Positions 2,542-53,684 of a stretch of 64,000 nucleotides of DNA are shown in pieces. This DNA comes from Cystobasidium ongulense (lineage: Eukaryota > Basidiomycota > Cystobasidiomycetes > Cystobasidiales > Cystobasidiaceae), in contig BQUP01000007.1 of assembly GCA_022835595.1 (NCBI GenBank), positions 868,001 to 932,000 of the forward strand. Direction: 5' to 3'. Position 1 is the stretch's first letter. Each line of letters opens with the position of its first letter. The notes below the pieces were generated by a model, which saw nothing but the letters and a program-made list of their open reading frames with translations, did not search any database and was not told where the DNA came from. The position numbers and the translations under genes are program-made.

Positions 2542-3640
2542 ATTCAGAGCTGGCATTTCGTCGTTTCCAGACAATTCTCGGTTTTTATATGCCAGCCTTA
2601 TGATACAAGCATCTCATGAGTATCATATTGCATTCCTGGCATTTTCATTTGTTCTATATTATTATGCAAGACTTTTCATCAATTTCTGAGTATAGCGAAG
2701 GAATGACTTGAATTCAAGGGTTCTAGCTTCACTCATGTCATTAGTTTATATTTCTTTATAGCCCTGTTTTGATTTGCTTTAGTATTTTCAAAAAGCATGG
2801 CTTATGGGTTTAGGGTTTTAGATAGTCAGTATAGTCAGGTTTTTCGATTTTCTACACAACCAAGTCGTTCTGTTAGTTTTTCACCCTTTCTTTCAAAGTT
2901 TTAGCAATTTAGAACTAAGTTCTAAGGGGACGTTAGCAATACTGTAGCTTTAGTTAACGCATCGTCCCCCTCGCATGCAATAATATCGTTGCATTTCATC
3001 TGTCAATAAGCTAATTAGCTATGCTTGGGTGTTTTTCGCTGGACTTTTATAACGCTTTGAGACTCAGGATAGCCTTGCGGTAGCATTGGGGCCGCTGGAG
3101 AGCTATCGGGTCCGACTGAGAGTCCGCCAGGGACGGCGCTCCGATGTCTGGGCCCGAAGCAGTCCATGAAGCCCACTCTTGGATCCAAAGAACCGATCTA
3201 GACGTAAAGAACTGCGTAACATTTCCTCGTCGCGGTAAGGTGAAGAAACGCATATATCATAAACCATTGTATCATCACCAAGGGTTTCGGTTCGCTATCT
3301 AAGCCGGGAGTTGCTGCAAGCTTTCGTGTTGCAAGAACGGTTTGAAAGGCAATTAATGGAAATTAAAATGCAAAGTATATCCGCTATAAATAGTGAAGAT
3401 CGATCCCGCTGATACCGGGCGGACGGACATGTCGCTGATAATCGAGGTACACGTGTATATCTACCGCACTCTTGCTTGCACGAGGAGCAAGTGAGGCGCT
3501 GCTCATCTTGCCTCTCTTTCCTTTGCTTTGCTTGCTCCAGTCCTCTGAGCACCACCCGTCTTCGTCCTGCCCAAGTACAGTAAGCGCGATGTTCTGATCA
3601 GACACGCCATCGTCAAGACAATAACACGTGCACTTTCAGG
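2542..3640. other. Gene-free interval
   Basis: About 1.1 kb without a supported gene. Positions 2580-2900 are AT-rich and probably hold the 3' untranslated region of the previous gene. A TATA-like element (GCTATAAATAG) sits near 3384-3393, about 250 bases before the next ATG. Small minus-strand ORFs between 3295 and 3605 look like chance. Confidence 0.5.
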
Positions 3641-4918
3641 ATGCGTGTTCTCATCAGTGGTTCGGGCGTCGCTGGACCTACTTTAGCTTGGTTCTTGTCC
3701 AAAGCAGGCCATCGCGTTGATGTCGTCGAGAAAGCGAAGAAGCTCCTTCCTCACGGCCAAAATGTAGATATCGAAGGTAGTGCACTAAGAGTTATCCAGA
3801 AGATGGGATTACTAGATGAAGTGAAAAGAAATAACACAACAGAGCAAGGAACACAATTCATTGATACTAGCGGACAACCATTCGCTCCTTTTCCCGTGAT
3901 CAAACGTCAGCAAGCTAGTTTTACGTCTGAATACGAAATCTTGAGGGGAGACTTAGCAGCTATTCTACACAATGCTGCAAAGGAATTCGATAACCTTACT
4001 TATCACTTCGATACTGTTATTAAGAAAGTCATCTCAAACGACGAGAAAAGCGTCAAGGTCGAACTTAGCAATGGTGAAATTGGAGAATATGATATTCTGG
4101 TTGCTGCAGATGGACAATGGTCAAAAGTTAGAAAGCAATGCTTCCCTGCAGAAAGCATCAAGGTCATCGATATGAACATGTACGCTGTATACTTTACTAT
4201 CCCACGCATTTCTTCGGACAACAATTGGTGGAACATTTACATCGCAGGTCAATCCAAGACTGTAGCTTTGAGACCTGATCCGCACGGCACCACACGAGCC
4301 ATGTTCACTCTCATGCCATTAAACGAAGCACAAAAGCAAGCATGGCAATCAGCTTCCAGAGCAGGTCGAGAAGCTCAACAAGACCTCATCAGAAGTGAGT
4401 TTAAGAATGCAGGTTGGCAAGCTGAGCGAATTATACAAAGCATGGAAGACGCACCAGACTTCTACTTTCAAGCTCTGCAGCAAATCAAAATGGATAAATG
4501 GTCAATTGGAAGGGTGATCTGCCTTGGTGATACTGCTTCTGCCCCTACTCCTCTCACTGGTATGGGTACTACGTTGGCACTTACGGGAGCACATCTATTA
4601 GCTGGTGAACTTAGTAAACTGAAAGAAGGAGACCATCCAAAGGCAGCTTTCGAATCGTATGAAAGTATGTACAAACCTTGGGTCGAGAAGCAGCAGTCCA
4701 TCCCTTGGTTCGTGCCAGGAGTCGCTCATCCAAATTCAGCTCTCAAGCGGCGGATCTTCAACACTTGCATAGCCGGTATATCTGCAATTGTCGCGAAGGT
4801 TACTTCTACACCTTGGTTAATGAGCAAGATTGAGGCAGAGAAAGAAGCAGACGAGATCAGGGAAGATTTCCCGCTTCCTCACTATCCTAGTCTGGAAGGA
4901 CAGAGCATTAAAATATAG
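3641..4918 (+). CDS. FAD-dependent monooxygenase (PHBH/TetX-like), intronless
   Basis: A single 425-residue open frame encodes a complete class A flavoprotein monooxygenase. At the N-terminus is the Rossmann nucleotide-binding motif GSGVAGP (residues 7-13), with the acidic strand-2 end VVEKAKK. The mid-protein DG motif is DILVAADGQWSKVRKQ, and the FAD ribityl-binding GD motif is ICLGDTASAPTPLTGMG around residues 292-308. These are the three signatures of the p-hydroxybenzoate hydroxylase fold, which uses NAD(P)H and O2 to hydroxylate aromatic or polyketide substrates. The length fits TetX-like and zeaxanthin-epoxidase-like members. No signal peptide or membrane anchor is visible. It is the only multi-domain gene here with no intron, and it is richer in A and T than its neighbours. 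The substrate is unknown. Confidence 0.93.
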   Translation: MRVLISGSGVAGPTLAWFLSKAGHRVDVVEKAKKLLPHGQNVDIEGSALRVIQKMGLLDEVKRNNTTEQGTQFIDTSGQPFAPFPVIKRQQASFTSEYEILRGDLAAILHNAAKEFDNLTYHFDTVIKKVISNDEKSVKVELSNGEIGEYDILVAADGQWSKVRKQCFPAESIKVIDMNMYAVYFTIPRISSDNNWWNIYIAGQSKTVALRPDPHGTTRAMFTLMPLNEAQKQAWQSASRAGREAQQDLIRSEFKNAGWQAERIIQSMEDAPDFYFQALQQIKMDKWSIGRVICLGDTASAPTPLTGMGTTLALTGAHLLAGELSKLKEGDHPKAAFESYESMYKPWVEKQQSIPWFVPGVAHPNSALKRRIFNTCIAGISAIVAKVTSTPWLMSKIEAEKEADEIREDFPLPHYPSLEGQSIKI

Positions 4919-34558: not shown

Positions 34559-36971
34559 CTATGTAAATAAGTCATCGCTACGACAGGGGTTTCGAGCCGA
34601 TTTGTTTGTGTCCGATCTTGGCCTTGGAGTATAAATGCCCACTTGCTGGAGGAGAAGCCAGCATAGGGACGCGCACCACATCCATAACGTAAGCTCCGTC
34701 TGCTTCGCAGCATTCTCCTCGATGTTTGCTTCCAGCCAGTCTTTTCTGGCAGACAGAGCGACCGTCGATTCACGTAGTTTTGGCAAAGCGCGGTCGACAT
34801 TGTCTTGTATGACCACCGCATTGGGATTTGCCACCTTCAATTGCGATTCGATTTGTTCGGCTGTGATATAATTCGAATGGAGCCCATATGGTACTCTAGC
34901 TGGGAGCTGTACAATGCCGACAATGGCAGAAGAAGGGTCATTGAACCCCATCTTGAGTGCATCAATAATGTACATTTGCGAGTTAGAGGCATCTGGAGCA
35001 TCCCCATTGGGAAGCAGCTGTGCTTCATCATATACATAAAACACAAGGAATCCATCATCTTCTGACCGGGGATTATTTCGAGGAATGAAAACCGGTTCTT
35101 GACCATGGACGCCTGAAGGAAGATCAAAGATCTGGATGTACTCGTCTCTCTTGCCCGCTTTTTGGGCAGCCAGTACGTCTGCAACACTCCGTTTATCTAC
35201 CTCCTCGAAGCGTTCAAGCTGACCGTCTTGTGCCATGGCTATGCCCTTCAAACGTAGACCTTCAACGTTGATCTTGACGATGCAATCGATCTTCGCGCCT
35301 TCCAATGCCGAATCGAAACAGCCGGCACGAAGTGTGCAACCATAGACGAATTGGTGCTGCCTCATAGAGTGAGCGTGAGAGACGACGGGGAAATCGAAAG
35401 GTATGGCGCTGAGACTGAATGCATGGGTGATTGGATTATCTTGTCGCAAGGGGTCGTCTGACGATATTGAAAAGCGCAAGTAGGTCAAGCGGACGACATC
35501 ACTCAGTTCGCGTGAAAGCTTTTCTTCCAACGCGGGTGCCTGCAAACCTCCAGCTGCAAATACCAACTTTGATGTTCTGAATCTGCAGCAATAGAAATTG
35601 ACTGCCACCAGCTTGTCATCTCCATCCGGCCCTTCGTACTGCTGACCGCCAAGACCCTCATCCCAGGCATCGGCTGTGTGGAAGATGAGAGATGGTTCGG
35701 GATCTTCAAACCATTGAACCTCGTCTTGATCGGCGCCATCGAAGTAGCGAGGTATGACGCCAAATCGACTTGTAAGTCCGCGGTTGAAATGCAACATAGG
35801 CTGCGCAAGGACTATATTGAGGGGATTCATGGTGAGAGGCAGATCTAGTATGATGGAGTGATGTAAGGATACACCAAAGTCGTGCATCATTTTAGGTCTG
35901 TCGACGCCGAAAATTGGAGCCTTAAAGGAAGGGGAATGAGAGCCATCCTTGTGAACGACGGAATGTGTCACGAAAGGTGGAGCAAAGCTGGAAATCGCAA
36001 GTTTAGCAAAGAAAGGCAATGTGCGCAAACAAAACCCACATGTTGTAACCGTAGAATACGAGATCACCTGTCACTGGGCAGACCTTAGGATGGCCAGTAG
36101 TCCATTCCTCCAACATCTGACCGGATTTGCCCAGTCTCTTTCCCACCACTTGCTTTCCAACCCCTAGACCTTCCCCTTTCTCATCGATGAACAACTCCCA
36201 TCCCTCTGTTTCCAGACCGGGTGCTCTTATCCTCATCATAGGCCCGGACTCGCAGGTCGCTAATAGCTTACGGTTATGGAAGAGAATTGAGGTATTTGCG
36301 ACGCTCAGCCGGGATAACGAAGACAGGTAGCATATCGAAAGCGTCCGAAGAAGGGTGATGAGAAGCTTCACCGGGTATGTCGAGATGGGTGCGATAAGAG
36401 ATGCTATTGTGGGAATTAAAGTTCTTCCTCGCCTGTGAACAATGTGCGTACTCTCAGCATACCATACCTGCTAAACAACGAGCGAATAGACCTACTTCTG
36501 CGATGCTAAAAGTACATCTGTCTGAACGAACTTGTTGACGTAGCAAGGTATTATTCCTCCCGCCTCTCGACGGAAGAAGACGCCTGCTAGCATTCCGTCT
36601 CCATCAAAGCTGGAAAGAGGTGGCGAATTGAGTAGGTGATCGCCGGCAAGTCAGTAAGTGAATCTAACCAAATGATCCAGCACAGCTCACAAGTGATATC
36701 CTGCTTCATCTGTCGGCGGAAAATACGCATTTGCACCATTTCGAATATATTGACCGCCTGCAAACTCTGGCGGTATGAAGCCTTCAAGAAGCTCGCAGGG
36801 AAGAAGATCGAATTCTTTGCGCACTGGGCGAAAGTTGCCAGCCAAGTAGGGGTGTCGTGAGTGTGCAGTTGTTTTCATTCCTTCGGCGGGTTGGACAGAA
36901 AGTTTCTGTGAGTGTTCCTGAAGGTGCTTATGCTGGACTCGTTCTTCCAAGCTTGCTACCGGGTCCTGCAT
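34559..36971 (-). CDS. Carotenoid cleavage oxygenase (CarT/RPE65 family)
   Basis: Exons 36691-36971, 36496-36609, 36040-36432 and 34559-35987 give 738 residues, rather long for the family. PPEFAGGQYIRNGANAYFPP and FDGDGML match the conserved N-terminal blade. Four iron-binding histidines can be placed: TTGHPK (with CPVTGDLVFYGYN), KMMHDF, SLIFHTADAW and YGLHSNYI. These enzymes use a non-haem Fe(II) centre to cleave a carotenoid double bond with O2. The fungal members make retinal or torularhodin/neurosporaxanthin precursors. An insertion after residue 130 (KRGRTLIPTIASLIAPISTY) contains a hydrophobic helix that may seat the enzyme on a membrane. The last 60 residues are not conserved-looking, and the C-terminal end could involve an unseen intron. 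Confidence 0.9.
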
Positions 36972-42018: not shown

Positions 42019-45000
42019 CTAATACCACGGTGTGGCCTGGAATTCCTGCCACCCCTGCCATCGCGATGCATCGGCTCTACTAAGCGCAATCCTCCTAGCT
42101 GCAAGCACTTGCTCATCTTTCCTTCGCATAGCCTCCATTTCAACTTCGCATCTCCTCTTCAACGCGAGAATTTGCTCCATCGTAAGATTGGCAAACTGCT
42201 GAGGCAATTGAGAGATGTCATGCAATAATGATGGAGGTGGTGGCGCTTGGGCTGCGAAGAAGCCAGGATGAGAAGCTAGTGTCGAATAGGATTGGTTGAA
42301 GGAAGGTCCAGCGAAAGCGAGGACTGGAGCTCCTGGGGTTGCTCTACTATTGCTGCTATGTTCCAGTGGCGTTTGTTGCGTCTGTTTTTCGACCATTGGT
42401 AGCTGAATTTCAGCGGCCGCTACCTGAACCCGTTCAGGATCGACCGCCACTTGAAACCCCACGACTGCCTCCTTCCATTGCACAGGCTCCGGTGCCATAG
42501 GCTGCAACACTTCCTTCTCCCGTACCTTCTCTGTGCCATGCGAGTCAGAGAAGAACTCGCCAAGGAAGTCTGTCGAGGTCTCTATGTCAGTGCGAATGCT
42601 ACAGCGCGATTTTGATCGCTTCTTACCTTGCCGTCCGACTTCACGCTCAGGTGTGGCGGATGAGATGAGTTGGTCTTTGTCTCTGCCCACTTCTATTGCT
42701 ACTTCGACATGGCTGTGATTGATTGGGTTGGTGATTGTCTCGCTAGCAGCTGCGACGACGATCTGTTCAGGTGGCTGTAATCCAAGGTGCGTCCTTATTG
42801 CCTGAATGCTGCTCGCAATCTCCGGTGAATCCGCATCATCGCTCTGCTCCGAGACCGCTATAAAGATCTCATAAACAAGGTTGGCATAGCTGGGCTGACC
42901 ATTTGCAAGAAGCGCAGTGATAATCTCTTCGGAATTTCGAGCAGCCAGCCCGACGGAGCCTTCTTTCAGGTGCTTCAGGAAATCTGAAACTCCCACTGAC
43001 GAGGTATGTAATTCAGCGTCAAGAAGCATGGCTTCAATCTTGCTTGCGGGCTTGATGTCGGCTTTCCGAAGCTCTGAAACGATATAAGCGGCTAGACTAT
43101 CTTCTTCTGTTTCCATATGGCCTTCGTACATGTCAAGCACATCTTTCAGTGTTTGCATCTTGATCGTAACATCGAGTTGTCTCATAAAATGCAGCACTGT
43201 GTCGCACCACCGTATGTATGCTCGCTCGTCGGCAGTAGCGGTATCTAAGTTGCATTCGACCACCGCTCGATCCAATGCTTCGCTCGCATCGGGAAGTGGG
43301 GACCACCGTGCCAAGGCATCTTTCGTGATGTGCAGTTTGAATGCTATCCATGGCAGGGAGCTAGACGACCTCAAAGCATGCTTCGCAAATAATCGGATAT
43401 GTTCTTCCGATAGCTTGATTGAAGGATCTTGTACAAGCGCTTGCAGAGCTTTAGCGAAGCCTTCCTTCTTTTGATGATGACCCAGTAGTCTAAACAAGTG
43501 AAAAGCGGGCGAGCGCATATCTCGAGATACTTGTCTTCGTTGCTCGATGTAATCTTCGGAATTGATCGCTAGATCTTCTTGCCATCTTGCATAGAACAAA
43601 CACGCCAATTGAGTAGCAGCCTGTCTCGTTTGTCGGGTAATGTCTGCTCTGCTTGCGTCTTGTATCAATACTTTGAGGAGGCTTATTGCTCTGTCGTCAT
43701 CGTTTAAAGTCCAGGAGAAAGATGGATCGTTCATGACAAGTGGCAGAATCCCTCTAGCTAAGTCGATGTCGCCTAGCTCGATGGCTAGGTGCAGAATCTG
43801 ACCCGAAGTGGCATTCGCATATATATTACTTCTTGAGATGTGTTCACTCTCCGGCGGATCAGCATCATGCTGCCCTTGCATTTCCTCTTGCGATATTGAT
43901 ATTTCGCCATCCAACGCCTCATTCTCCAAGCTATTCATTGCTTGCCCTGATGCTTCGTACTCTAGCTCAGCATTCTCCCAATGACCAGTGATCATTCGCG
44001 GAGCATGCCATTTCTTCTTAAAGTTTCTCGCATCTTTGTCACGTTCTTCCTTCGCTCGTAAGTGGGCAGCATTTCTTAGTGAAGGAGAATGATGTGAATG
44101 TGCTTCCATCCTTCTTTTTGCCATTTTAGCTATTCTATATAACTCTCTATCGGTTTCGTAACCTTGGCTCAGGTACTCGTCGTACAATTTTATTGCTTCT
44201 AATGCTTTGTGCAGTAATTGTACCGCTATTGAGGCTTCTTGCAAGGAGACGTCGCTTGAGTATGTTGAGAATTGAGCATTAGGGTGACTGAGCAGAAATC
44301 TCATTTTGTTCTTCACGAAAGAGAGGGCCACTTTGTCTTGATCGCCTTCTGAGCCTATGATGGCAAGCATATCGGGATGTTCATCGTTCATGTAGATTTG
44401 GTTGACTCTGGCTTGTATTGATTGCTTCTTCTTGAACCATTGGCCAATAGGATGCTCGCTACCTTCTGTTTGTGCGACGCGTCGGATGTGAGTATTGAGG
44501 GCCACCACTAGTTCGGGATCATGTGCGTTCATAGCCGACATGGCGACTATGATATCGCGTCCACATTCCTCGACATTGATCGGTAACTGATTGTCCCATG
44601 CACAGCTTGTGAGGGTTAGAGCCACTTCCACATTTCTCCGTTGCGCCAGGCCAGAAATTATCCTGCTGTAGATTTCCTTCATCCCTTCTGGCCGTGTAGC
44701 AGAACCATTCTGTCTAGACTTGGGGAGGTTCAATTTGACCCCGAGAGAAATTGCGAGGTCCGTAAAGTTCTCCGCCGATCCATATTCGCTTAAAATGTCC
44801 GTAACTCGCTCAATCTCCTGAAGCTCAACTTGAGTATACGGATCCAACATTCTCGCGATAACGACACATAGTTGCCGTGCAGATCTAAATTCTTTCCGAG
44901 AATGGGGCACATCCTTTTGTTGAAACCAGGAGTGAAGTAATTGTAAGGTGTCGCGCACTTCTTCAGTTGGTATTGAATCATGTTGCTGCCAAATCTGATA

Positions 45001-45756
45001 TATCGAATTTAGACGATCCCACAGTTGGCCTCTTCGCTTCAATTGCAGCGCCTTTTGTATTTTGGCAAGTTGAGAAAGAACATGTAAAGGTTGAGCCTTC
45101 CGGCGATCCAGTGGTAGAGCATTAAAACTACTCCAGGTATCTCTGGCTTGAAGTGCATTTGGATTCTGCAGTGCTCTCAAAAGCCAAGCTTCTGCTACCT
45201 CAGCGCTAAGGGGATCTCTCTTCGGCTTTTTGCCATGCTTGTGTCTACTTGTGCTTGCAGTCTGCTTGTCACAAGTCGACGAGGCACTCGGTCCTGTGCT
45301 TTCTTGCTGGTCTATAGAGCGATGATCGCTTGTCTGGGTGAAAGTCTGCTGGAAAGCAAGGACAGACAGTCAGGTCCAGCCAGTACCTCCCACGGCGACT
45401 CGAAATCGATTGAAGAGCTACTCACATCGAGTGTTTCCTGCTGCTCGCGACCTTTGCCCTTGACGTCGATAATTTTGAAATGCGTCAATGGCTGCCAGGC
45501 CTTCGACGTTAGCTCTGCGGAAGGCTTCTCTGTAGGCAAAAGCGAAACTCACAGGGGACGCAGACACATTGTCTTGTCCAGAGACATGCTTGCTTCTAGA
45601 AAAGTGTCGGCGCGAGCATGTGCAGTCTGCAGGGCGCTTCGCATTTGCAGATGGCTGCTGCTGCTTCCAAGCGGGCTGCTGCTGCTGTGGTTGCTCGTTG
45701 AAGCCGCGAGCAGCCCTGAGCACTCTAGCGGCTCTCCATGAGGATCTGGAGAGCAT
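42019..45756 (-). CDS. Mitochondrial helical-repeat (PPR-like) protein of unknown function
   Basis: Exons 45553-45756, 45426-45527 and 42019-45348 (with an optional in-frame 45-nt intron at 42582-42626) give about 1,200 residues. [20 protein letters not shown] is a strong mitochondrial targeting sequence: Arg, Ser and Ala with no acidic residues. The body is a long run of alpha-helical pairs (for example [20 protein letters not shown] and KLLIQDAS-like segments) of the pentatricopeptide/helical-repeat style. Fungal mitochondrial RNA maturation and translation factors often have this form. No individual PPR motif is clear, so a role in mitochondrial RNA is an inference. The C-terminal 200 residues are Gln/Pro/Ala-rich and end in a coiled coil ([20 protein letters not shown]). 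The acceptor before exon 2 is a double AG (acagag); the second AG keeps the frame. Confidence 0.8.
42582..42626 (-). other. Possible 45-nt stop-free intron in the helical-repeat gene
   Basis: GTAAGA ... ACATAG borders a 45-nt segment. Its removal changes [12 protein letters not shown]...IETSTDF to GRQETSTDF without a frame change. It contains no stop, so both the spliced and the retained form would be coding. Confidence 0.45.
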
Positions 45757-45938
45757 CTAGACCGTCCCTGACTGCTGTGCTGTATCCACGGCAATGCATC
45801 AAAGAACAAGCGAGATGCTGGATAGAGCGAAAACCACAAAGCCAATCGAGCACCTTTGCTCTTTCCGTGTCTGACTGGAGGAGAACAACCACAGCAACAG
45901 CAGCTCCTGGACAACATCACAAGGCTACACTCTACGCG
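45757..45938. promoter_or_regulatory. Compact divergent promoter, mitochondrial protein / centrin
   Basis: 182 bp separates the two divergent start codons. No TATA box is evident. Confidence 0.45.
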
Positions 45939-46808
45939 ATGTCATTGTATGCGGCGGCCGGAAAGGCGAAGGCTGCTCGAAGGACAGGGCATGCTGGTAC
46001 TTCGAGCGGTGTTGGAGGGCAATCTCTTGCAACGCGGCCTGATATCTCAGATGAACAACGGCAGGAGATACGAGAGGCGTTTGATCTATTCGTGCGTGTA
46101 TGCCATACAAGGTTCTCAATTGTGTTGACTTACAAGCTTGGCTTCAAACAGGACACAGACAAGGACGGGGCAATCGGATTCCACGAGCTCAAAGTCGCGT
46201 TACGCGCATTGGGATTTGACTTGAAGAAAGCTGAAGTACTAAAGCTACTACGAGATCACGATAGGCAAGGTTCTGGGCAGATGCAATTCGATGACTTTGC
46301 CAAAGTCGGTGGGTGGTCATTGTTTTGTACTCTGGTTTGGGATCACACATATTGACGCGTCGTTCACTATATAATTTCATACTTTGGCTCTCCCTTCTAT
46401 CAATTGATGCACTCTCACCGTATCTTAGTGACCGAACGGATATTGGCGAGAGATCCTCTTGATGAAATCAGACGCGCTTTCAGACTCTTCGACGATGATG
46501 GTACAGGGAGAATCTCAATTCGCAATCTGAAGCGTGTAGCTAAAGAGCTAGGGGAGAATCTAGATGACGAAGAGTTGTAAGTATAAATATTCCGGCATAC
46601 TCTAGGCTGAAAGACTGCTTAAAGCCTGACTGTCCTATTCTGACTCTGTCTGCTTCCCCAGACAAGCGATGATTGACGAATTTGACCTAGATCAGGACGG
46701 CGAGATCAGCGAGGCTGAATTTGTGAGTTTGAACATTGCTTATTGTACGTGCCAGTAGTACTGATGTCACGTCTGCTTCAGATCGCAATAATGACGGATG
46801 ACATCTAG
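45939..46808 (+). CDS. CDC31: Centrin (Cdc31), EF-hand calcium-binding protein of spindle poles
   Basis: Five exons (45939-46091, 46152-46308, 46429-46576, 46662-46722, 46782-46808) give 181 residues. A basic N-terminus of about 40 residues precedes [20 protein letters not shown], the classic centrin EF-hand 1. EF-hand 2 ([16 protein letters not shown]), EF-hand 3 ([20 protein letters not shown]) and EF-hand 4 ([16 protein letters not shown]) follow. Loops 1, 3 and 4 keep the acidic positions 1, 3, 5 and 12; loop 2 is degenerate, as in many centrins. Cdc31 is needed for spindle pole body duplication and also binds Sac3 (mRNA export) and Rad4/XPC. Confidence 0.95.
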
Positions 46809-47194
46809 GGTCCTCCCGCAAAGCACGCCTACGCTGTAAGGCACGATACCCTGGTACATACCCTGCTTGAGGCTGGTTCAGCAGATGAGTCCATTCGCCT
46901 CCTGATAATCACGTTGGTGTGCATTCTGTAGTTTCAGTCATCTCTGTTGTTGCATACAATTCATGAACATCCTGTCCTTAATTTGGGGACCTTGCGGTTT
47001 GGTGAGCTAAGGAATGGCGGACTGCGTGTAGCTGTCTCCTCTTGTTGAGACTGTATAGCCGTCCCCTTGCTAAAGTGATATCCATGTTGCTTTCCTATAT
47101 TGCGCGCGCAATCAAATCTACGATGACAGCCAAATTTCATGACGAATATCATGCATGTTACCGAAACATTGACATTGAGAGGCACCTAACTTGC
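46809..47194. other. Spacer before the secreted-protein array
   Basis: 386 bp with the end of the centrin transcript and the 3' flank of array copy A. The part from about 47060 resembles the 3' flanks of copies B and D (ATGTTACTTTCCTAT-type sequence), so the duplicated unit extends past the stop codon. Confidence 0.55.
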
Positions 47195-47902
47195 TTAATA
47201 CTGAGGTTGGATGGGTCGTCCGGGTAATTGCACACGAGCTCGAGCTACTTGCTTGCTCCTCTTGTTGAAACTGCCAGAGGGGGTCGGACTTGTGCAACCG
47301 AAAGGCGTGTTCTGGGATTGACCGGGAGCGCACTCGCAATTACCACTGGCGTTAATGAACCGATCAGTAGTCGAGCTGCAAGAGGGGCCTTCGGTTGCGT
47401 CGTATCTGATGAAGGGAATGCCAGGAATATGTTAGTCACAGTCCGCTAAAAGGTATACTTCAAGCCAAACGTGAGGGCGCTACGGACCTCCAGCTGACGC
47501 TCTTGATACCACTTAGGTTGCTCATTCCACTTGGATCGTACCTTAGGAAGATCCCGTAATTTCCGGCTGAAGTAGCCCGTATAGCGTTGTGAAAAGAGCA
47601 AATAGGTCACAGACGGATATCAGCTCTGGTGCATCATGAAGGCAAACCAAGAATGGTTATAGTTTTTACTACACAAGCTCACCGTCTACAACACCAATAC
47701 AGTTCGGGGTTTGATCGCAACTGGCCTTGCCTGCTTCTACATCCGCAGGAAAGAAATAAGTTATTCCGACGCGCGCGGCAAAGTTGACGCTGGTGACTGA
47801 AAAATCTTGGTAGGTGCCTTGAGCGCAAGCGATATCGGTGAGACTAGCAAGTAGTGCTAGGACCGCGGCTACCAGGATAGTGGGAGGAAAGGCCTTGAAC
47901 AT
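47195..47902 (-). CDS. Small secreted six-cysteine protein, array copy A
   Basis: Three exons (47683-47902, 47488-47566, 47195-47405) give 169 residues. The signal peptide is MFKAFPPTILVAAVLALLA and ends near ACAQG. The mature protein has six cysteines: CDQTPNC in exon 1, then GPSCSS, NCECAPGQ and FGCTS in exon 3. The C-terminus is basic: SFNKRSKQVARAR, then LPGRPIQPQY at the very end. A KR dibasic site precedes this tail and could allow Kex2 release of a short peptide. I do not recognise the family. Size, secretion and even cysteine number are what is seen in fungal effectors and in small wall-associated proteins. Exon 2 is the long form (79 nt), as in copy D. Confidence 0.82.
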
Positions 47903-48064
47903 TGATGCGGTTGGGATATGTTGTGTGGCTTGGGTAAGCCTGTGTTGGTGGTGAGCTGCGATAGAGTGGTTGCGAATTGAGGACTACAGGATCCGGATAG
48001 ACACGAAGTCCTTCAAGGGGCTCTGAATGGGATCATCTTTGGGGAGTCCCTAAGGTGTCGATGA

Positions 48065-48084
48065 TCACCAAAGTGATACTACCA
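48065..48084 (-). promoter_or_regulatory. Conserved proximal element of copy A
   Basis: TCACCAAAGTGATACTACCA lies about 165 bp upstream of the ATG. It is repeated exactly at 51163-51182 before copy C and with changes at about 49675-49694 before copy B. Its core ATCAC-CAAA-GTGAT is an inverted repeat, a shape expected of a dimeric factor site. Confidence 0.45.
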
Positions 48085-48140
48085 AGGTTTGAGAGGGCAT
48101 TTTTATGTAAATAGTCATCCCCTTAGACATATCGATTTTT

Positions 48141-48429
48141 CAATCAGTGCATCAAGTGAAAGACCTTTGGTTGACATTGCCGATCGCAGTAGCGCAGGGA
48201 GTCGCAGTCTTCTCCGCTCGCATGATTGTATTGGGCCGCAGGTCGAGATGCTGATCTGTCTTTGGTGGTTTCGCTTGCCGGTTCATATGCATTTCGGGTG
48301 AATGATTCTGAGATGATTGGTTTGAAACTAAAGGTGAGACTATCGTGCTTAGCATGCTGGAGGTTTTGACTGCCAATCCGCCGAGCCTTCTTGTGGCGCA
48401 ATATTTACGCAGAGATTCACTGCTTATTC
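48141..48429 (-). promoter_or_regulatory. Conserved upstream block, copy A
   Basis: This 289-bp block lies 240-530 bp before the ATG of copy A. It matches the block before copy C (51239-51527) almost base for base over its whole length. Shorter, more diverged versions precede copies B and D. Elements kept in all four include GTTGACATTG(C/T), GATCGCAG and CTTCTCCGCTCGCA. Confidence 0.7.
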
Positions 48430-48756
48430 CTGATGTTTGGTCCAGACCACAGCCAGCCTGCCGCTTCGTTCAACAGGCACCATATCTCCAATCCATGCGG
48501 CTAGAAAATAAATTTCTGGCAACTGACGAAGAAAGCGGAAGCGTGCGTCCTTGCTCTTTCTTCCACGACACTCCTTAGGCATTCTCTTAGACAAACCAAT
48601 GCCAGTATAACGATCCCCTTTGTCAAAGTAATGCCCATGTTACTTTTCTATGTTAGGCAAAGGCAATTAAAAACCACACTGACAACCACATATTATACAT
48701 ATGACGAAGATTCATGTATGCTATCAAAGTATTGATTCTGCGAGCGCCTGACTTGC

Positions 48757-49490
48757 TTAATACTGAGGTTGGATAGGTCGTCCAGGCAGCTGGACACGAG
48801 CTCGGGTCGCTTGCCTGCTCCTCTTAGTAAAGCTACCAGAAGGGCTTAGACCTGTGCAACCGAAAGGAGTGTTCTGGGTTTGACCGGCAGCGCACTGGCA
48901 GTTCCCACTTTTGTCTACGAATTGATCAATAGTCGAGCTGCAAGAGGGGCCTTCGGTTGCGTCGTACCTGATGAAGGGAAAACAAGAACGTACAAGTAAC
49001 AGTCCGTCAGCAATTGTCATAAAAGCTGAGGGCCGAGGCTGATTGTCGAGGCGCAACTGACCTCCAACTGATGGTGTTGTAAGTACTTCCAACAGCGGAA
49101 AGTCGTATGCCAGAGTCTGCATAGGACAGGAGTGAAACCGCGTCGGGTCCTTATTGTGCCGATATAGCGTTGTGGAATGAGTAAGAAAGTCGCATGTGGA
49201 TATCAGCTCTGGTACATCACAACGGAACACAAAGGACAATTGTGTTGCCACTACGCAAACTCACCACCTAATACACCGATACAGCTCGGAAGTGCATCGC
49301 AAACGGCCTTGCCTGTTGACAGATCTGGGTTATAGATTGTGAGATCTACCTTGAGCGGGGAGGCAAATTCGGTGTAGTCCCCGATGGCAAAATCTTGGTA
49401 GATGCCTTGTGCCGAAGCGATATCGGTGAGACTAGCAAGTAGAGCTAGGACTGCGGCCATCAGAATAGACGTAGGAAACCCCCCGAACAT
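48757..49490 (-). CDS. Small secreted six-cysteine protein, array copy B
   Basis: Exons 49265-49490, 49062-49116 and 48757-48967 give 163 residues. The signal peptide is MFGGFPTSILMAAVLALLAS. Cysteines occur in CDALPSC, GPSCSS, NCQCAAGQ and FGCTG. The second exon is the short form (55 nt, encoding DSGIRLSAVGSTYNTISW). The tail is SFTKRSRQATRARVQLPGRP followed by IQPQY, the same end as the other copies. An upstream in-frame ATG at 49601 would add about 37 residues ahead of the signal peptide and is unlikely to be used. Confidence 0.82.
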
Positions 49491-50265
49491 TGATACGACT
49501 GCGATGTGTTGTGTGACTTGGGTGAGCCTGTGTTGGGAGTGAGGGTAACCTGCAATATTATGATTTTGCAACGAGAACAACAGGGTGAACCACGCACGCA
49601 TGCACTAAACACGGAATCCATTCAAGGTGCTCTCAATGGAATACGTCCGCGGGGGATCCCTGAAGTATCAAGCCGCACCAAAGTGAGACTACCAAGGTTT
49701 GACGAGCATACTTTTCACGTGGATGGTCATCCCCTCAAACACATCGGCTGCACAATTAGTGTATCGGATTGTTGACATTGCCGATCGCAGCACCGCAAGG
49801 AGTCATTGGATTCTTCTCCGCTCGCAGCGATGATTTGGTCCGAAGGCGTTGGTTGGTGTCACTGATGTCATTTGTGGTCTCGTGTGACAATTCATCAGCA
49901 TTCTTGATGCTTCTGGAATGAATAGGTCCGAAACAAAAGCTGAGACTGTCGAAATATCTTGACCGCCGATGCCCAACTTCTTTGTGGCGCGCAATCAATT
50001 ATAGAGGAAGAGGCCAATATTATATCACGTTTCATCCTGAGGCCTAGCCAGGCCACAGCCAGTATTCTGATTTTAGCGGTACGACTGCTCGGCAAATGGC
50101 GATGTACACTCTGAGGCAAGTTGGCACCAGTATGTCCGTCGCTTTGCTGAGTGGTGTCCATGTTAGTTTCTATGTTGGCAAACCCTCCCTACAGTTACAT
50201 GTCATGCGAAAGTCTATGTATATTACTGAAATACTATTCTTGGAACTCTATCTACCTTGCAATAC
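49491..50265. other. Spacer between array copies B and C
   Basis: Contains the promoter of copy B, with a diverged version of the conserved block at 49753-49990, and the 3' flank of copy C. No independent gene is supported. Confidence 0.6.
49753..49990 (-). promoter_or_regulatory. Conserved upstream block, copy B (diverged)
   Basis: It keeps TTGACATTGCCGATCGCAG and TTCTTCTCCGCTCGCA, but the sequence between and after them is clearly diverged and partly deleted compared with copies A and C. Confidence 0.55.
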
Positions 50266-50991
50266 TCAATACTGAGGTTGGAGGGGTCGTCCAGGCAACT
50301 GCACACGAGCACGGGTCGCTTGCTTGCTCCTCTTGTTGAAGCTACCAGAAGGGCTTAGACCTGTGCAACCGAAAGGAGTGTTCTGGGTTTGACCGGCAGC
50401 GCACTGGCAGTTTCCACTTTTGTCTACGAATTGATCAATAGTCGAGCTGCAAGAGGGACCCTCGGTTGCGTCGTATCTGGTGAAGGGAACACAGGAACGT
50501 ATGAGTCACAATCCACCAGCATCTGTATTCCAGGCTGAGTGGAGAGAGGCTACTGACTTCCAGCTGATGGTCTGGAAGTAACTATCAGCACCGGTAATTT
50601 CTTGGCCAGATCCTGAGTAAGATAGGAGTTCAACGACGTAACGAGCTTATGGAGCCCATATAGCGTTGTGGAATGAGTAATAAAGTCGCATGTGGATATC
50701 AGCTCTGGTCTATCCAGAAGCAAACAAAGGACAATTATGTTGCCATTGCACAAGCTCACAGGCTAATGCACCAATACAGTTCGGAAGTGCATCGCAAATG
50801 GCCTTGCCTGCTGATACCGGTAGATCTGGGTTATAGATTGTAGCAAGTCTGTTGAGGGTGGCTGCAAACGTGAGGGAGTCTCCGACTGCGAAATCTTGGT
50901 AGGTGCCTTGAGCGGAAGCGATATCGCTGAGACTAGTAAGTAGAGCTAGGACCGCGGCTGCCAGGATAGTGGGAGGAAATGCCTTGACCAT
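50266..50991 (-). CDS. Small secreted six-cysteine protein, array copy C (possibly non-functional)
   Basis: By homology the exons are 50760-50991, 50558-50612 and 50266-50476. The signal peptide is MVKAFPPTILAAAVLALLTS. CDALPNC, GPSCSS, NCQCAAGQ and FGCTG supply six cysteines, and the tail LPGRP...QY is kept (PGRPLQLQY-like, ending in TGA rather than TAA). The last base of exon 1 is T where the other copies have G. With the usual acceptor the junction codon becomes TGA, a stop that exists only after splicing. Either this copy is a recent pseudogene or it uses another splice pattern. The rest of the frame is intact, which argues that any damage is young. Confidence 0.6.
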
Positions 50992-51844
50992 TGATGCGAT
51001 TGGCATGTATTGTGTGACCTGGGTGAGCCTTTGGTTATAGTGAACTGCGATAGAATGGTTGCGAAATGAGGACTACAGGATCAACCTTGCACGGATAGAC
51101 ACGAAATCCTTCAAGGGGCTCCCAACGAAATCATCTTTTGGGAGTCCCTAAGGTATCGATGATCACCAAAGTGATACTACCAGGTTTGACGAGGATAGTT
51201 TCGTGTGAGTAGTCATCCCCTCAGACACGCTGGTTGTTCAATCAGTGCATCAAGTTCAAGACCTTTGGTTGACATTGCCGATCGCAGTAGCGCAGGGAGT
51301 CGCAGTCTTCTCCGCTCGCATGATTGTATTGGGCCGCAGGTCGAGATGCTGATCTGTCTTTGGTGGTTTCGCTTGCCGGTTCATATGCATTTCGGGTGAA
51401 TGATTCTGAGATGATTGGTTTGAAACTAAAGGTGAGACTATCGTGCTTAGCATGCTGGAGTTTTTGACTGCCAATCCGCCGAGCTTCTTGTGGCGCAATG
51501 TTTACGCAGAGATTCACTGCTTATTCTGAGTCCAGTCCACAGCCAGTAGGCTGCCGTTTCCAAAGCCATCATACCTCCAGTACATCACGGCCAGATAATC
51601 AACTTAGTACCTCTGGCAAGCCACGAAGAAAGCTGAAGCGCGCGGCCGCTCTCTCGCGACACTTCTAGTGGACATGGCGATATATACTGAGGCAAACCAA
51701 CGCCAGCATGACTGTCCCTTGCTAGAGTAATGTCCATGTTACTTTTCTATGTAAGGCAAAACCACTCTATACTGACAGGTAAATATCAAGACGAAGTTGC
51801 AAGTGTGTTTCCGTAATCTTAAATCTGGGAGGCACCCAGCTTGC
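50992..51844. other. Spacer between array copies C and D
   Basis: Contains the promoter of copy C with its conserved block and proximal element, and the 3' flank of copy D. No independent gene is supported. Confidence 0.6.
51239..51527 (-). promoter_or_regulatory. Conserved upstream block, copy C
   Basis: The block is 289 bp long and near-identical to the one before copy A, and it sits at the same distance from the ATG. It is more similar to copy A's block than the coding exons of A and C are to each other. Confidence 0.7.
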
Positions 51845-52550
51845 TTAATACTGAGGTTGGATGGGTCGTCCGGGTAACTGCACACGAGCTCGAGCTACTT
51901 GCTTGCTCCTCTTGTTGAAACTGCCAGACGGGGTCGGACCTGTGCAACCGAAAGGCGTGTTCTGGGATTGACCGGGAGCGCACTGGCAATTACCACTGGC
52001 GTCGATGAACTGATCAGTAGTCGAGCTGCAAGAGGGGCCTTCGGCTGCGTCGTATCTGATGAAGGGAATGCCAGGGAATATGTTAGTCACAGTCCGCTAA
52101 AAGGTATACTTCAAGCCAAACGTGAGGGCGCTACGGACTTCCAGCTGACGCTCGTGATACCATTTAGGTTGCTCGTTCCACTTGGATCGTAACTTAGGAG
52201 AAACCCGATAAATCCGGCTGAAGTAGCCCGTATAGCGTTGTGAAAAGAGCAAGTAGGTCACAGACGGATATCAGCTCTGGTGCATCATAAAGGCAAATGA
52301 AGAATGGCTATAGTTTTTACTACACAAGCTCACCGTCTACGACACCAATACAGTTCGGGGTTTGATCGCAAGTAGCCTTGCCTGCTTCTACACCCCCAAA
52401 GAAATCAGTTAATACGACGCGCGCGGCAAAGTTGACGCTGGTGACTGAAAAGTCTTGGTAGATGCCTTGTGCCGAAGCGAGATCGGCGAGACCAGCAAGG
52501 AGTGCCAGGACCGCAGCTACCAGAATATTTGGGGAAAATATTTTGAACAT
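51845..52550 (-). CDS. Small secreted six-cysteine protein, array copy D
   Basis: Exons 52334-52550, 52139-52217 and 51845-52055 give 168 residues. The signal peptide is MFKIFSPNILVAAVLALLAG. Exon 1 (QGIYQDFSVTSVNFAARV and CDQTPNC), the long exon 2 and both introns match copy A closely. Exon 3 has GPSCSS, NCQCAPGQ and FGCTG, then SFNKRSKQVARAR and LPGRPIQPQY. It is the upstream-most member of the array. The first 300 bp before its ATG differ from the other copies more than the coding part does. Confidence 0.82.
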
Positions 52551-53684
52551 TGAAGCGAATTGGAAAGTGTTGCGTGATTTGTATGAACTTCTGTATGTAC
52601 TGAACTGCTGTAGAAGGCTTTCGGAACGAAGACAAGAAGATCTATCCTGTACGAAGCTAAGAAGTACGATAGCCATTCAAACCTCTCAATGAAATCGCCT
52701 TCAGATGATCCCTGAGGGATCAATCATCGGCACAGTGGACAAAGTTTACCGTGAGTAGTTTCAGCTGAGTTGTCATCCCCTCAGACAATTGCCTGTAGGA
52801 ACAGTGCACCAAGTTGAGAACTTTCGTTGACATTGTAGATCGCAGTACCCAGTGAGTCGCAGTCTTCTCCGCTCGCATGATTGTATGGGCCGCAACTCGA
52901 GATGCTGATCTGTCCTTGGTGGTTTCGCTTGCCGGTTTATATGCATTTCGGGTGACTGATTCTGAGATGATTGGTTTGAAGCTAAAAGTGAGACTATCGT
53001 GCTTAGCATGCTGGAGTCTTTGACTGCCAATAATCCGCCGAGTGTAGCGTCCTATCGCTGAGAGCAAGTTCGAGCGAAGACAACGGAAGTATGAACGAAC
53101 TCTGCGAGTACTGATCATCACGATTTTGGGACCTTCCGCTTCGGTAAGCTAGTAGACAGCGGATTACCCGGGTGTGATTGTCTCGTCCGCCAAAGAACTC
53201 CACATGAACCTGTGTGGTCCTCCAGCAGGCAATGTACCTTGCTGCCTTGCCAAGGTGCACGATCTCTACCATACTTGATTATGGATTTGATTATGTAATC
53301 AGTGACCCCGATGTAAGAACTTCAATCCACACGGCATATCAGCGTAGTGCAAGGCAGCCTACAAGTATCGATACGCGAGTGTCAACTTCCAGCAGAACGT
53401 GGAGGCTTTCAAGTCCCCTGCAGCGCGCATGCATGAAAGAAGTGCTCGCATATGTAAAGTGCGATTATCGAAAGACTGGTCTGATCTGCTCTGACTCTGG
53501 CAGCGCGGGATGAGATGAGTCCAGGATAGACAGCCAGACTGCACCTCCTTGCATAGCCGTACCTGGCGTGCACTCTGCTGGGCGATACTGCGCTGGCTGC
53601 ACCCTCGTCTAGGCAACTCCGATATCAGAGAACGAAGGAGCACCATCTGCAAGAGCAGAGCAAAGCAGCAGGCGAGGAAGGCAT
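52551..53684. other. Spacer at the array edge
   Basis: Contains the promoter of copy D with its conserved block at 52800-53040, where homology to the array stops. The remaining 640 bp before the next gene hold only short overlapping ORFs on both strands. Confidence 0.55.
52800..53040 (-). promoter_or_regulatory. Conserved upstream block, copy D
   Basis: A slightly shortened version of the block: it keeps the elements GTTGACATTG, CTTCTCCGCTCGCATGATTG and the stretch around ATATGCATTTCGGGTGA, with small deletions. Confidence 0.65.

What the first reader, a model, noticed from the sequence alone, without database searches (positions are those of the whole stretch)
46975..53040. Four-copy tandem array of an unrecognised secreted six-cysteine protein family
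Seen directly: four minus-strand genes with the same three-exon structure, a signal peptide, six cysteines in fixed positions, and a repeat period of about 1.55 kb that includes promoter and 3' flank. I cannot match the family to any known domain. Inference: recent local expansion of a secreted protein under diversifying or dosage selection, as seen for fungal effectors or species-specific wall proteins. The spacing and shared flanks show that the duplications are segmental.
Basis: partly seen in the sequence, partly recalled or inferred. Interest (0 to 1): 0.75.

Follow-up and report, generated by a model that had tools for sequence, protein, structure and literature searches.

The report
Expanded secreted cysteine-rich yeast proteins
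Four neighbouring fungal genes make related small secreted proteins of unknown role; they belong to a larger scattered family in the same genome that shares a private promoter-like DNA word and swaps pieces between copies, probably in a red yeast rather than a plant pathogen.

Summary
Four minus-strand genes (47195-52550) fit one three-exon model with a hydrophobic N-terminus and six mature cysteines, at 1.50-1.59 kb spacing. They are not alone: three searches find 15 loci in four places: this array (A), a seven-locus cluster with two broken copies (B), three genes (C) and one (D). C and D have eight cysteines; A and B lack the same two. The only relative with a named organism is a hypothetical protein of Cystobasidium minutum, eight-cysteine, which runs through both splice positions. 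The host is thus probably a Cystobasidiomycete yeast, which weakens the plant-effector reading. New here: a 13-base word occurs 8 times in 19.8 Mb, 8 of 8 at 307-345 bases upstream of A or B genes; array copies are mosaics; the middle of the protein is weakly constrained (dN/dS 0.75) and the basic tail held (0.22). Positive selection is neither shown nor excluded. No Pfam match over a cut-off, no convincing PDB match. [quoted passage not shown] Function is inferred.

The parts
47683..47902 (-). copy A1, exon 1
   Evidence: gene model; exon match
47488..47566 (-). copy A1, exon 2
   Evidence: gene model
47195..47405 (-). copy A1, exon 3 with four cysteines and basic C-terminal tail
   Evidence: gene model; exon match
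49265..49490 (-). copy A2, exon 1
   Evidence: gene model
49062..49149 (-). copy A2, exon 2 (one alternative open start of this exon exists)
   Evidence: gene model
48757..48967 (-). copy A2, exon 3
   Evidence: gene model; exon match
50760..50991 (-). copy A3, exon 1
   Evidence: gene model
50558..50645 (-). copy A3, exon 2
   Evidence: gene model
50266..50476 (-). copy A3, exon 3
   Evidence: gene model; exon match
52334..52550 (-). copy A4, exon 1
   Evidence: gene model; exon match
52139..52217 (-). copy A4, exon 2
   Evidence: gene model
51845..52055 (-). copy A4, exon 3
   Evidence: gene model; exon match
48209..48221 (-). 13-base upstream word of A1, 307-319 bases before the ATG
49813..49825 (-). 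13-base upstream word of A2, 323-335 before the ATG
51307..51319 (-). 13-base upstream word of A3, 316-328 before the ATG
52864..52876 (-). 13-base upstream word of A4, 314-326 before the ATG
48150..48420 (-). upstream block of A1 (the query)
51248..51517 (-). upstream block of A3, 98% identical to that of A1
52817..53042 (-). upstream block of A4, 91% identical to that of A1 over query 36-260
49771..49951 (-). upstream block of A2, 70% identical to that of A1 over query 76-251

Best explanation
This is one of two amplified clusters of a lineage-specific family of small secreted, cysteine-rich, non-enzymatic proteins, probably of a Cystobasidiomycete yeast. Each protein enters the secretory path, folds around disulfides, shows a variable middle part on a conserved scaffold, and ends in a conserved basic tail. 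I think it acts outside the cell by binding a partner or surface (other microbes, wall or leaf polysaccharide), the variable part setting what is bound and the basic tail holding it to acidic polysaccharide or being clipped at the K/R-R site. Copies arose by segmental duplication with their promoters, are probably co-regulated through a shared upstream element, and stay a diverse but related set by exchange of segments between copies. Shown by computation: copies, one shared exon model, cysteine pattern, family size as a lower bound, relative, upstream word, mosaic pattern, constraint contrast. Inferred: transcription, secretion, disulfides, co-regulation, the exchange mechanism, binding.
For: 13 of 13 unbroken loci fit one three-exon model with phases 1 and 2 (splice sites were picked by eye, so the phases are partly by construction). 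P0007 of Cystobasidium minutum aligns across both junctions without intron residues. Over 13 models and P0007, cysteine columns 1, 5, 6, 7 and 8 are kept in 14 of 14 and column 2 in 13 of 14. The upstream word occurs 8 times in the genome, 8 of 8 at -307 to -345 of A or B genes, the reversed word once; about 0.6 expected. In those eight upstream sequences its 14-column invariant run exceeds each of 20000 shuffles, largest 9. A1 matches A3 rather than A4 at 170 of 200 informative sites before +98, and A4 rather than A3 at 185 of 220 after, 0 of 5000 permutations. Pooled dN/dS 0.75 middle, 0.22 tail, p = 0.0003.
Against: No expression, secretion or binding data. Structure models were poor (pLDDT 57 and 39) and covered parts only. 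Weak constraint in the middle also fits relaxed selection. The upstream word may be kept by exchange between copies rather than by function; B7 shows none in 620 bases, B2 has one mismatch, B4 was not assessed, and the C and D stretches have no convincing copy. The second donor of A and B models is GTCAGT or GTCCGT, not the usual form. B7's start has no counterpart in the others, so that model is the weakest.
Confidence: 0.42

Rival explanations
1. Structural or surface-active coat proteins: the family modifies the cell wall or the wetting of surfaces, and copy number serves dosage.
For: Some small secreted cysteine-rich proteins of Trichoderma act so (PMC8596622, passages seen). The part after the last cysteine has net charge +6 to +8 in 13 of 13 models. 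The shared upstream word suggests joint output.
Against: No cysteine doublets in the mature part of any model and no Pfam match for six members. Pure dosage does not predict a weakly constrained middle.
Confidence: 0.25
2. Plant-directed effectors, as in tandem clusters of smut fungi: the copies diversify to escape recognition by a host plant.
For: Tandem array, small size, cysteines, variable middle part; single-pair dN/dS of the middle above 1 in 4 of 14 pairs. Smut effector families lie in such clusters (PMC4081816, passages).
Against: The relative with a named organism is in Cystobasidium minutum; [quoted passage not shown] The pooled dN/dS is 0.75.
Confidence: 0.12
3. Precursors of a basic peptide: a Kex2-like protease cuts after the K/R-R pair and frees the conserved C-terminal 20 or so residues as the active product, the rest being a leader.
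For: A dibasic pair lies before the tail in 11 of 13 models; the tail is the most constrained part (dN/dS 0.22).
Against: B6 and D1 lack the pair. One peptide per precursor. The C and D tails differ from the A and B tail.
Confidence: 0.13
4. Largely neutral amplification: unequal exchange makes copies, the middle is relaxed, and several copies are on the way to loss.
For: Two of seven B loci are broken; B7 lost a conserved cysteine and shows no upstream word; pN and pS of the middle do not differ clearly (p = 0.08).
Against: The tail is under clear constraint (pN against pS p = 9e-7); 13 loci keep a full model; 8 keep the upstream word.
Confidence: 0.08

Closest known systems
Hypothetical protein P389DRAFT_167481 of Cystobasidium minutum MCA 4210 (P0007)
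   Same: Same length class (183 aa), start ending in AAQSYQDF, cysteine frame, place of both splice junctions, basic tail with PG. E 4.1e-57 to profile A5, made of C, D and three unnamed relatives.
   Different: Eight cysteines instead of six; groups with the C genes (91/88); 40% and 35% identical to the two array members compared, A4 and A3. It was not listed by the earlier search with profile A2, which held A and B members and scored a capped candidate list.
C and D genes of the same genome (C5:1905-1911k, C4:1901.8k)
   Same: Same three-exon model and phases, homologous over the protein.
   Different: Eight cysteines, shorter intron 1 (68-86 against 106-127 nt), different C-terminus, no convincing upstream word.
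Small secreted cysteine-rich proteins (hydrophobins, cerato-platanins, HFS proteins)
   Same: Small, secreted-type, cysteine-rich, no enzyme domain found; a works-like comparison only (PMC8596622, passages).
   Different: No Pfam match for six members and only two below-cut-off matches for P0007; no cysteine doublets in the mature part.
Tandem effector clusters of smut fungi (mig2, Tin, UhAvr1 cluster)
   Same: Clustered paralogues of small secreted proteins (PMC4081816 and PMC4836707, passages).
   Different: No sequence comparison with them was made; different fungal subphylum (inferred); no evidence of plant-induced expression.
CPL1-like cysteine-rich proteins (PF21671)
   Same: Also cysteine-rich proteins in this genome (11 matches, 8 over the cut-off).
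   Different: Six members tested and P0007 carry no CPL1-like match.

Membership tests
Small secreted cysteine-rich proteins (a class by features) | Short protein, under 300 residues | tested here: met
   168-177 residues in 13 of 13 models
Small secreted cysteine-rich proteins (a class by features) | Signal peptide | tested here: inconclusive
   Strongest hydrophobic stretch is N-terminal in 13 of 13; no dedicated predictor run
Small secreted cysteine-rich proteins (a class by features) | Four or more cysteines and no enzyme domain | tested here: met
   Six or more cysteines in 13 of 13 models; no Pfam match up to E 10 for the six of 13 models tried
Hydrophobins | Eight cysteines with CC doublets (recalled) | tested here: not met
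   Array members have six mature cysteines and no CC doublet; no Pfam match for A4 and A2
CPL1-like PF21671 | CPL1-like domain | tested here: not met
   No such match; the domain's 11 places in the genome lie outside the 15 family loci
Kex2-processed repeat precursors | Several repeated peptides separated by dibasic sites (recalled) | tested here: not met
   One dibasic region before the tail in most models, none in B6 and D1; no repeats seen in the models by eye
Plant-induced effector clusters | Expression induced on the host plant | not testable with these tools
   No expression data
Plant-induced effector clusters | dN/dS above 1 between copies in the exposed part | tested here: inconclusive
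   Above 1 in 4 of 14 single pairs; 0.75 pooled over four pairs with no gene used twice
Family of Cystobasidium protein P0007 | Homology over the length with the same splice junctions | tested here: met
   directly for C and D, by alignment for A and B
Family of Cystobasidium protein P0007 | Eight-cysteine frame | tested here: not met
   Columns 3 and 4 are empty in 9 of 9 A and B models and filled in 5 of 5 C, D and P0007; the array is a separate branch, and no outgroup tells whether the pair was lost or gained

The most novel reading that the evidence does not exclude
A free-living or mycoparasitic red yeast keeps a dedicated, co-regulated repertoire of variable secreted recognition proteins. 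A single private upstream word drives at least eight genes in two clusters, and segment exchange between copies shuffles the variable middle onto a fixed scaffold and tail, in the manner of cassette diversification but aimed at other microbes rather than at a plant or animal host. If the missing cysteine pair was lost on the amplified branch, that loss freed the middle part to vary.
Probability: 0.15. Interest if true: 0.65.

Novelty: new member of a known kind. Interest (0 to 1): 0.42.

Why it matters
Tandem arrays of variable small secreted proteins are often read as plant-effector arms races. A clear case in a yeast lineage without known plant disease would show that the same genome pattern arises in other settings. 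The private 13-base upstream word makes co-regulation directly testable, and the eight-cysteine relatives give a comparison for what the amplified branch does differently.

Tried and rejected
Other exon models: unspliced reading is closed in 9 of 9 A and B genes. With the other junctions fixed, ending intron 1 at the nearer AG before the CTGAT box is not open in A1-A4 (the branch-box reading is recalled). Open one-intron models exist on paper in each of the nine (11-73), so three exons rest on shared junctions and on P0007, not on frame alone.

Smut fungus (Ustilaginomycotina) as host: my first guess, which also shaped several paper searches; dropped after one search pointed to Cystobasidiomycetes. 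CPL1-like kinship: looked at and dropped. PAN/Apple-like kinship: considered from memory only; Pfam gives no support. PDB by sequence: two weak hits with A4 (afifavidins, E 0.022 and 0.023), two with the profile (E 0.14 and 1.3), none with P0007; none was judged meaningful.

Structured RNA in the upstream block: folding no better than shuffles in 4 of 4 pieces, no Rfam match in 46500-53600. A second upstream word (CTGAGGGGATGAC): 2 places, upstream of A3 and A4, reversed control 1. Ribosomal RNA for naming the organism: 5.8S not found. Structure models of exon 3 and of P0003-P0005: too poor, so no fold search was made. Paper searches; no listing showed this family, but several were aimed at smut fungi and most listed papers were not opened.
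Full report
Observation. The window holds four minus-strand genes with ATGs at 47902, 49490, 50991 and 52550 (A1-A4). One three-exon model fits all four; introns are 114-116 and 81-94 nt in phases 1 and 2. The repeat unit, with upstream and 3' parts, recurs at 1.50-1.59 kb. The proteins have 168-176 residues, a hydrophobic start, six cysteines in the mature part, and an almost invariant C-terminus ending in LPGRP(I/L)QPQY. A1 has a seventh cysteine in the signal region. Pfam gives no match for the two array members tried, A4 and A2.

Are the exons right? Splice sites were picked by eye from shared signals. Unspliced reading is closed in 9 of 9 A and B genes; with the other junctions fixed, the chosen end of intron 1 is the only open one in A1, A3 and A4, one of two in A2 and one of two to four in the five B genes; open one-intron models also exist in each. 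The outside test is P0007, an annotated hypothetical protein of Cystobasidium minutum (183 aa), which runs through both predicted junctions without intron residues. It supports the C and D models directly and the array by shared junctions: 13 of 13 unbroken loci fit phases 1 and 2, partly by construction. The second donor in A and B is GTCAGT or GTCCGT, not the usual form.

Family size. Three searches of the window's genome (19.77 Mb, 19 contigs) with A4, C2 and D1 as queries gave 31, 30 and 30 matches, which fall within 15 loci: A, four genes in this window; B, seven loci at C5:451-461k on both strands; C, three genes at C5:1905-1911k; D, one at C4:1901.8k. B2 has a frame break in its signal region and no standard donor after exon 1; B4 has a stop in exon 3 and no exon 1 that I could find. 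The other 13 give full models; B7, whose start has no counterpart, is the weakest. The search scores only the best candidates, so 15 is a lower bound.

Relatives elsewhere. With A4 alone only two proteins were listed, P0001 and P0002, both readable from the window itself. Profile A5 (C, D and P0003-P0005) listed six proteins, P0007 first at E 4.1e-57. P0008 is letter for letter a frame of the C locus stretch L025, and P0003 matches the corresponding C3 frame at 115 of 124, so the same or a near species lies in unnamed public contigs.

Cysteines. Over 13 models and P0007, six cysteine columns are shared, column 2 being lost in B7 alone. Two further columns are filled in 5 of 5 C, D and P0007 proteins and empty in 9 of 9 A and B proteins. 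I infer that the two are disulfide partners that came or went together; without an outgroup the direction is open. The tree separates A+B from C+D+P0007 with 100/100; P0007 joins the C genes with 91/88; A is one side of a branch in only 26% or 17% of 200 bootstrap trees, so A and B are not resolved.

Upstream word. In an alignment of about 620 bases upstream of ten A and B genes (B4 not included), a block is shared by nine; B7 does not align there. The word GCGAGCGGAGAAG occurs 8 times in the genome; 8 of 8 lie upstream of A1-A4, B1, B3, B5 and B6, in gene orientation, 307-345 bases from the ATG; the reversed word occurs once. By base composition about 0.6 would be expected. In those eight sequences (B2 and B7 dropped before the count) the longest invariant run is 14 columns against at most 9 in 20000 column shuffles; with B2 added it is 12, again against at most 9. 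Upstream identity in the five of 20 A-B pairs measured (A1-A4 with B1, B2, B3, B5 and B6) is 52-65%, so the word stands out. It could be a binding site (inference) or be kept by exchange. The C and D stretches hold no convincing copy, and RNA folding of the block is not better than shuffles.

Mosaic copies. Upstream of the gene A1 is nearly identical to A3 (100% in two 75-column blocks), but from about +49 to +690, introns included, it is 83-98% identical to A4 and 32-85% to A3. At 420 informative sites A1 is like A3 at 170 and like A4 at 30 before +98, then 35 and 185 after it; none of 5000 permutations is as uneven. The tests with A3 (444 sites) and A4 (308 sites) as query also give 0 of 5000. 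Rate differences alone do not readily swap the nearest relative, so exchange (conversion or unequal crossing over) is the likely cause.

Selection. Over four pairs with no gene used twice (A1-A4, A2-A3, B1-B3, B5-B6), pooled dN/dS is 0.39 in the signal region, 0.75 in residues 35-98, 0.34 in the exon 3 cysteine region and 0.22 in the tail; the region borders were set after seeing the alignment. The middle differs from the tail (p = 0.0003), the signal region (p = 0.01) and, barely, the cysteine region (p = 0.047). Within the middle pN is below pS, not significantly (p = 0.08). Against this, single pairs exceed 1 in 4 of 14: A1-A4 1.63, A1-A3 1.15, A3-A4 1.31, A4-B5 1.48. A1-A4 rests on 16 non-synonymous and 3 synonymous changes. 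Diversifying selection inside the array is thus possible and not shown. The method is simple and treats exchanged segments as independent.

Host. The relative points to Cystobasidiomycetes. Species of the genus are often pink and its type species is a mycoparasite (PMC6027198, one passage). The placement is an inference from one protein family plus size and composition.

Function. What is shown is a constrained scaffold and tail, a loose middle, co-duplicated upstream DNA and mosaic copies. I commit to an extracellular binding role at about 0.42; coat protein 0.25, peptide precursor 0.13, plant effector 0.12, mostly neutral amplification 0.08. Structure prediction on exon 3 (pLDDT 57) and on relatives of exons 1-2 with read-through intron (pLDDT 39) was uninformative.

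Verdict. A real but modest discovery: an undescribed secreted-type family amplified in one fungal genome, with a private upstream word as its most testable feature. None of the ten paper searches returned a listing that shows this family; of the listed papers I saw passages of eight and read none whole.

Noticed in passing
window 34559-36070 (-): Long frame with a strong match to carotenoid oxygenases (RPE65, PF03055, E 2e-51).
   Followed up: no
window 3584-4918 (+): FAD-binding monooxygenase-like protein (PF01494, E 2e-29).
   Followed up: no
window 45729-46580 (+): EF-hand protein (centrin-like is recalled), in at least two frames, next to the low-coordinate end of the array on the other strand.
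   Followed up: partly
G000 C2, C3, C7, C8 (L027-L034): Eight CPL1-like domain matches over the family cut-off in this genome, in cysteine-rich frames with varied upstream parts.
   Followed up: partly
L024 7504-8301 and L023 11-1198: A haem peroxidase (PF00141, E 4e-25) lies on one side of the B cluster and a POP1-like protein (PF08170, E 5e-30) on the other.
   Followed up: no
L025 7458-7868, and proteins P0003-P0005: In C3 intron 1 is 72 nt and open, so an unspliced longer frame can be read; P0003-P0005 appear to be such read-through frames of relatives. Whether retention is used is unknown.
   Followed up: partly
window 42019-45369 (-): 1116-residue open frame without a Pfam match at E 0.001.
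   Followed up: no
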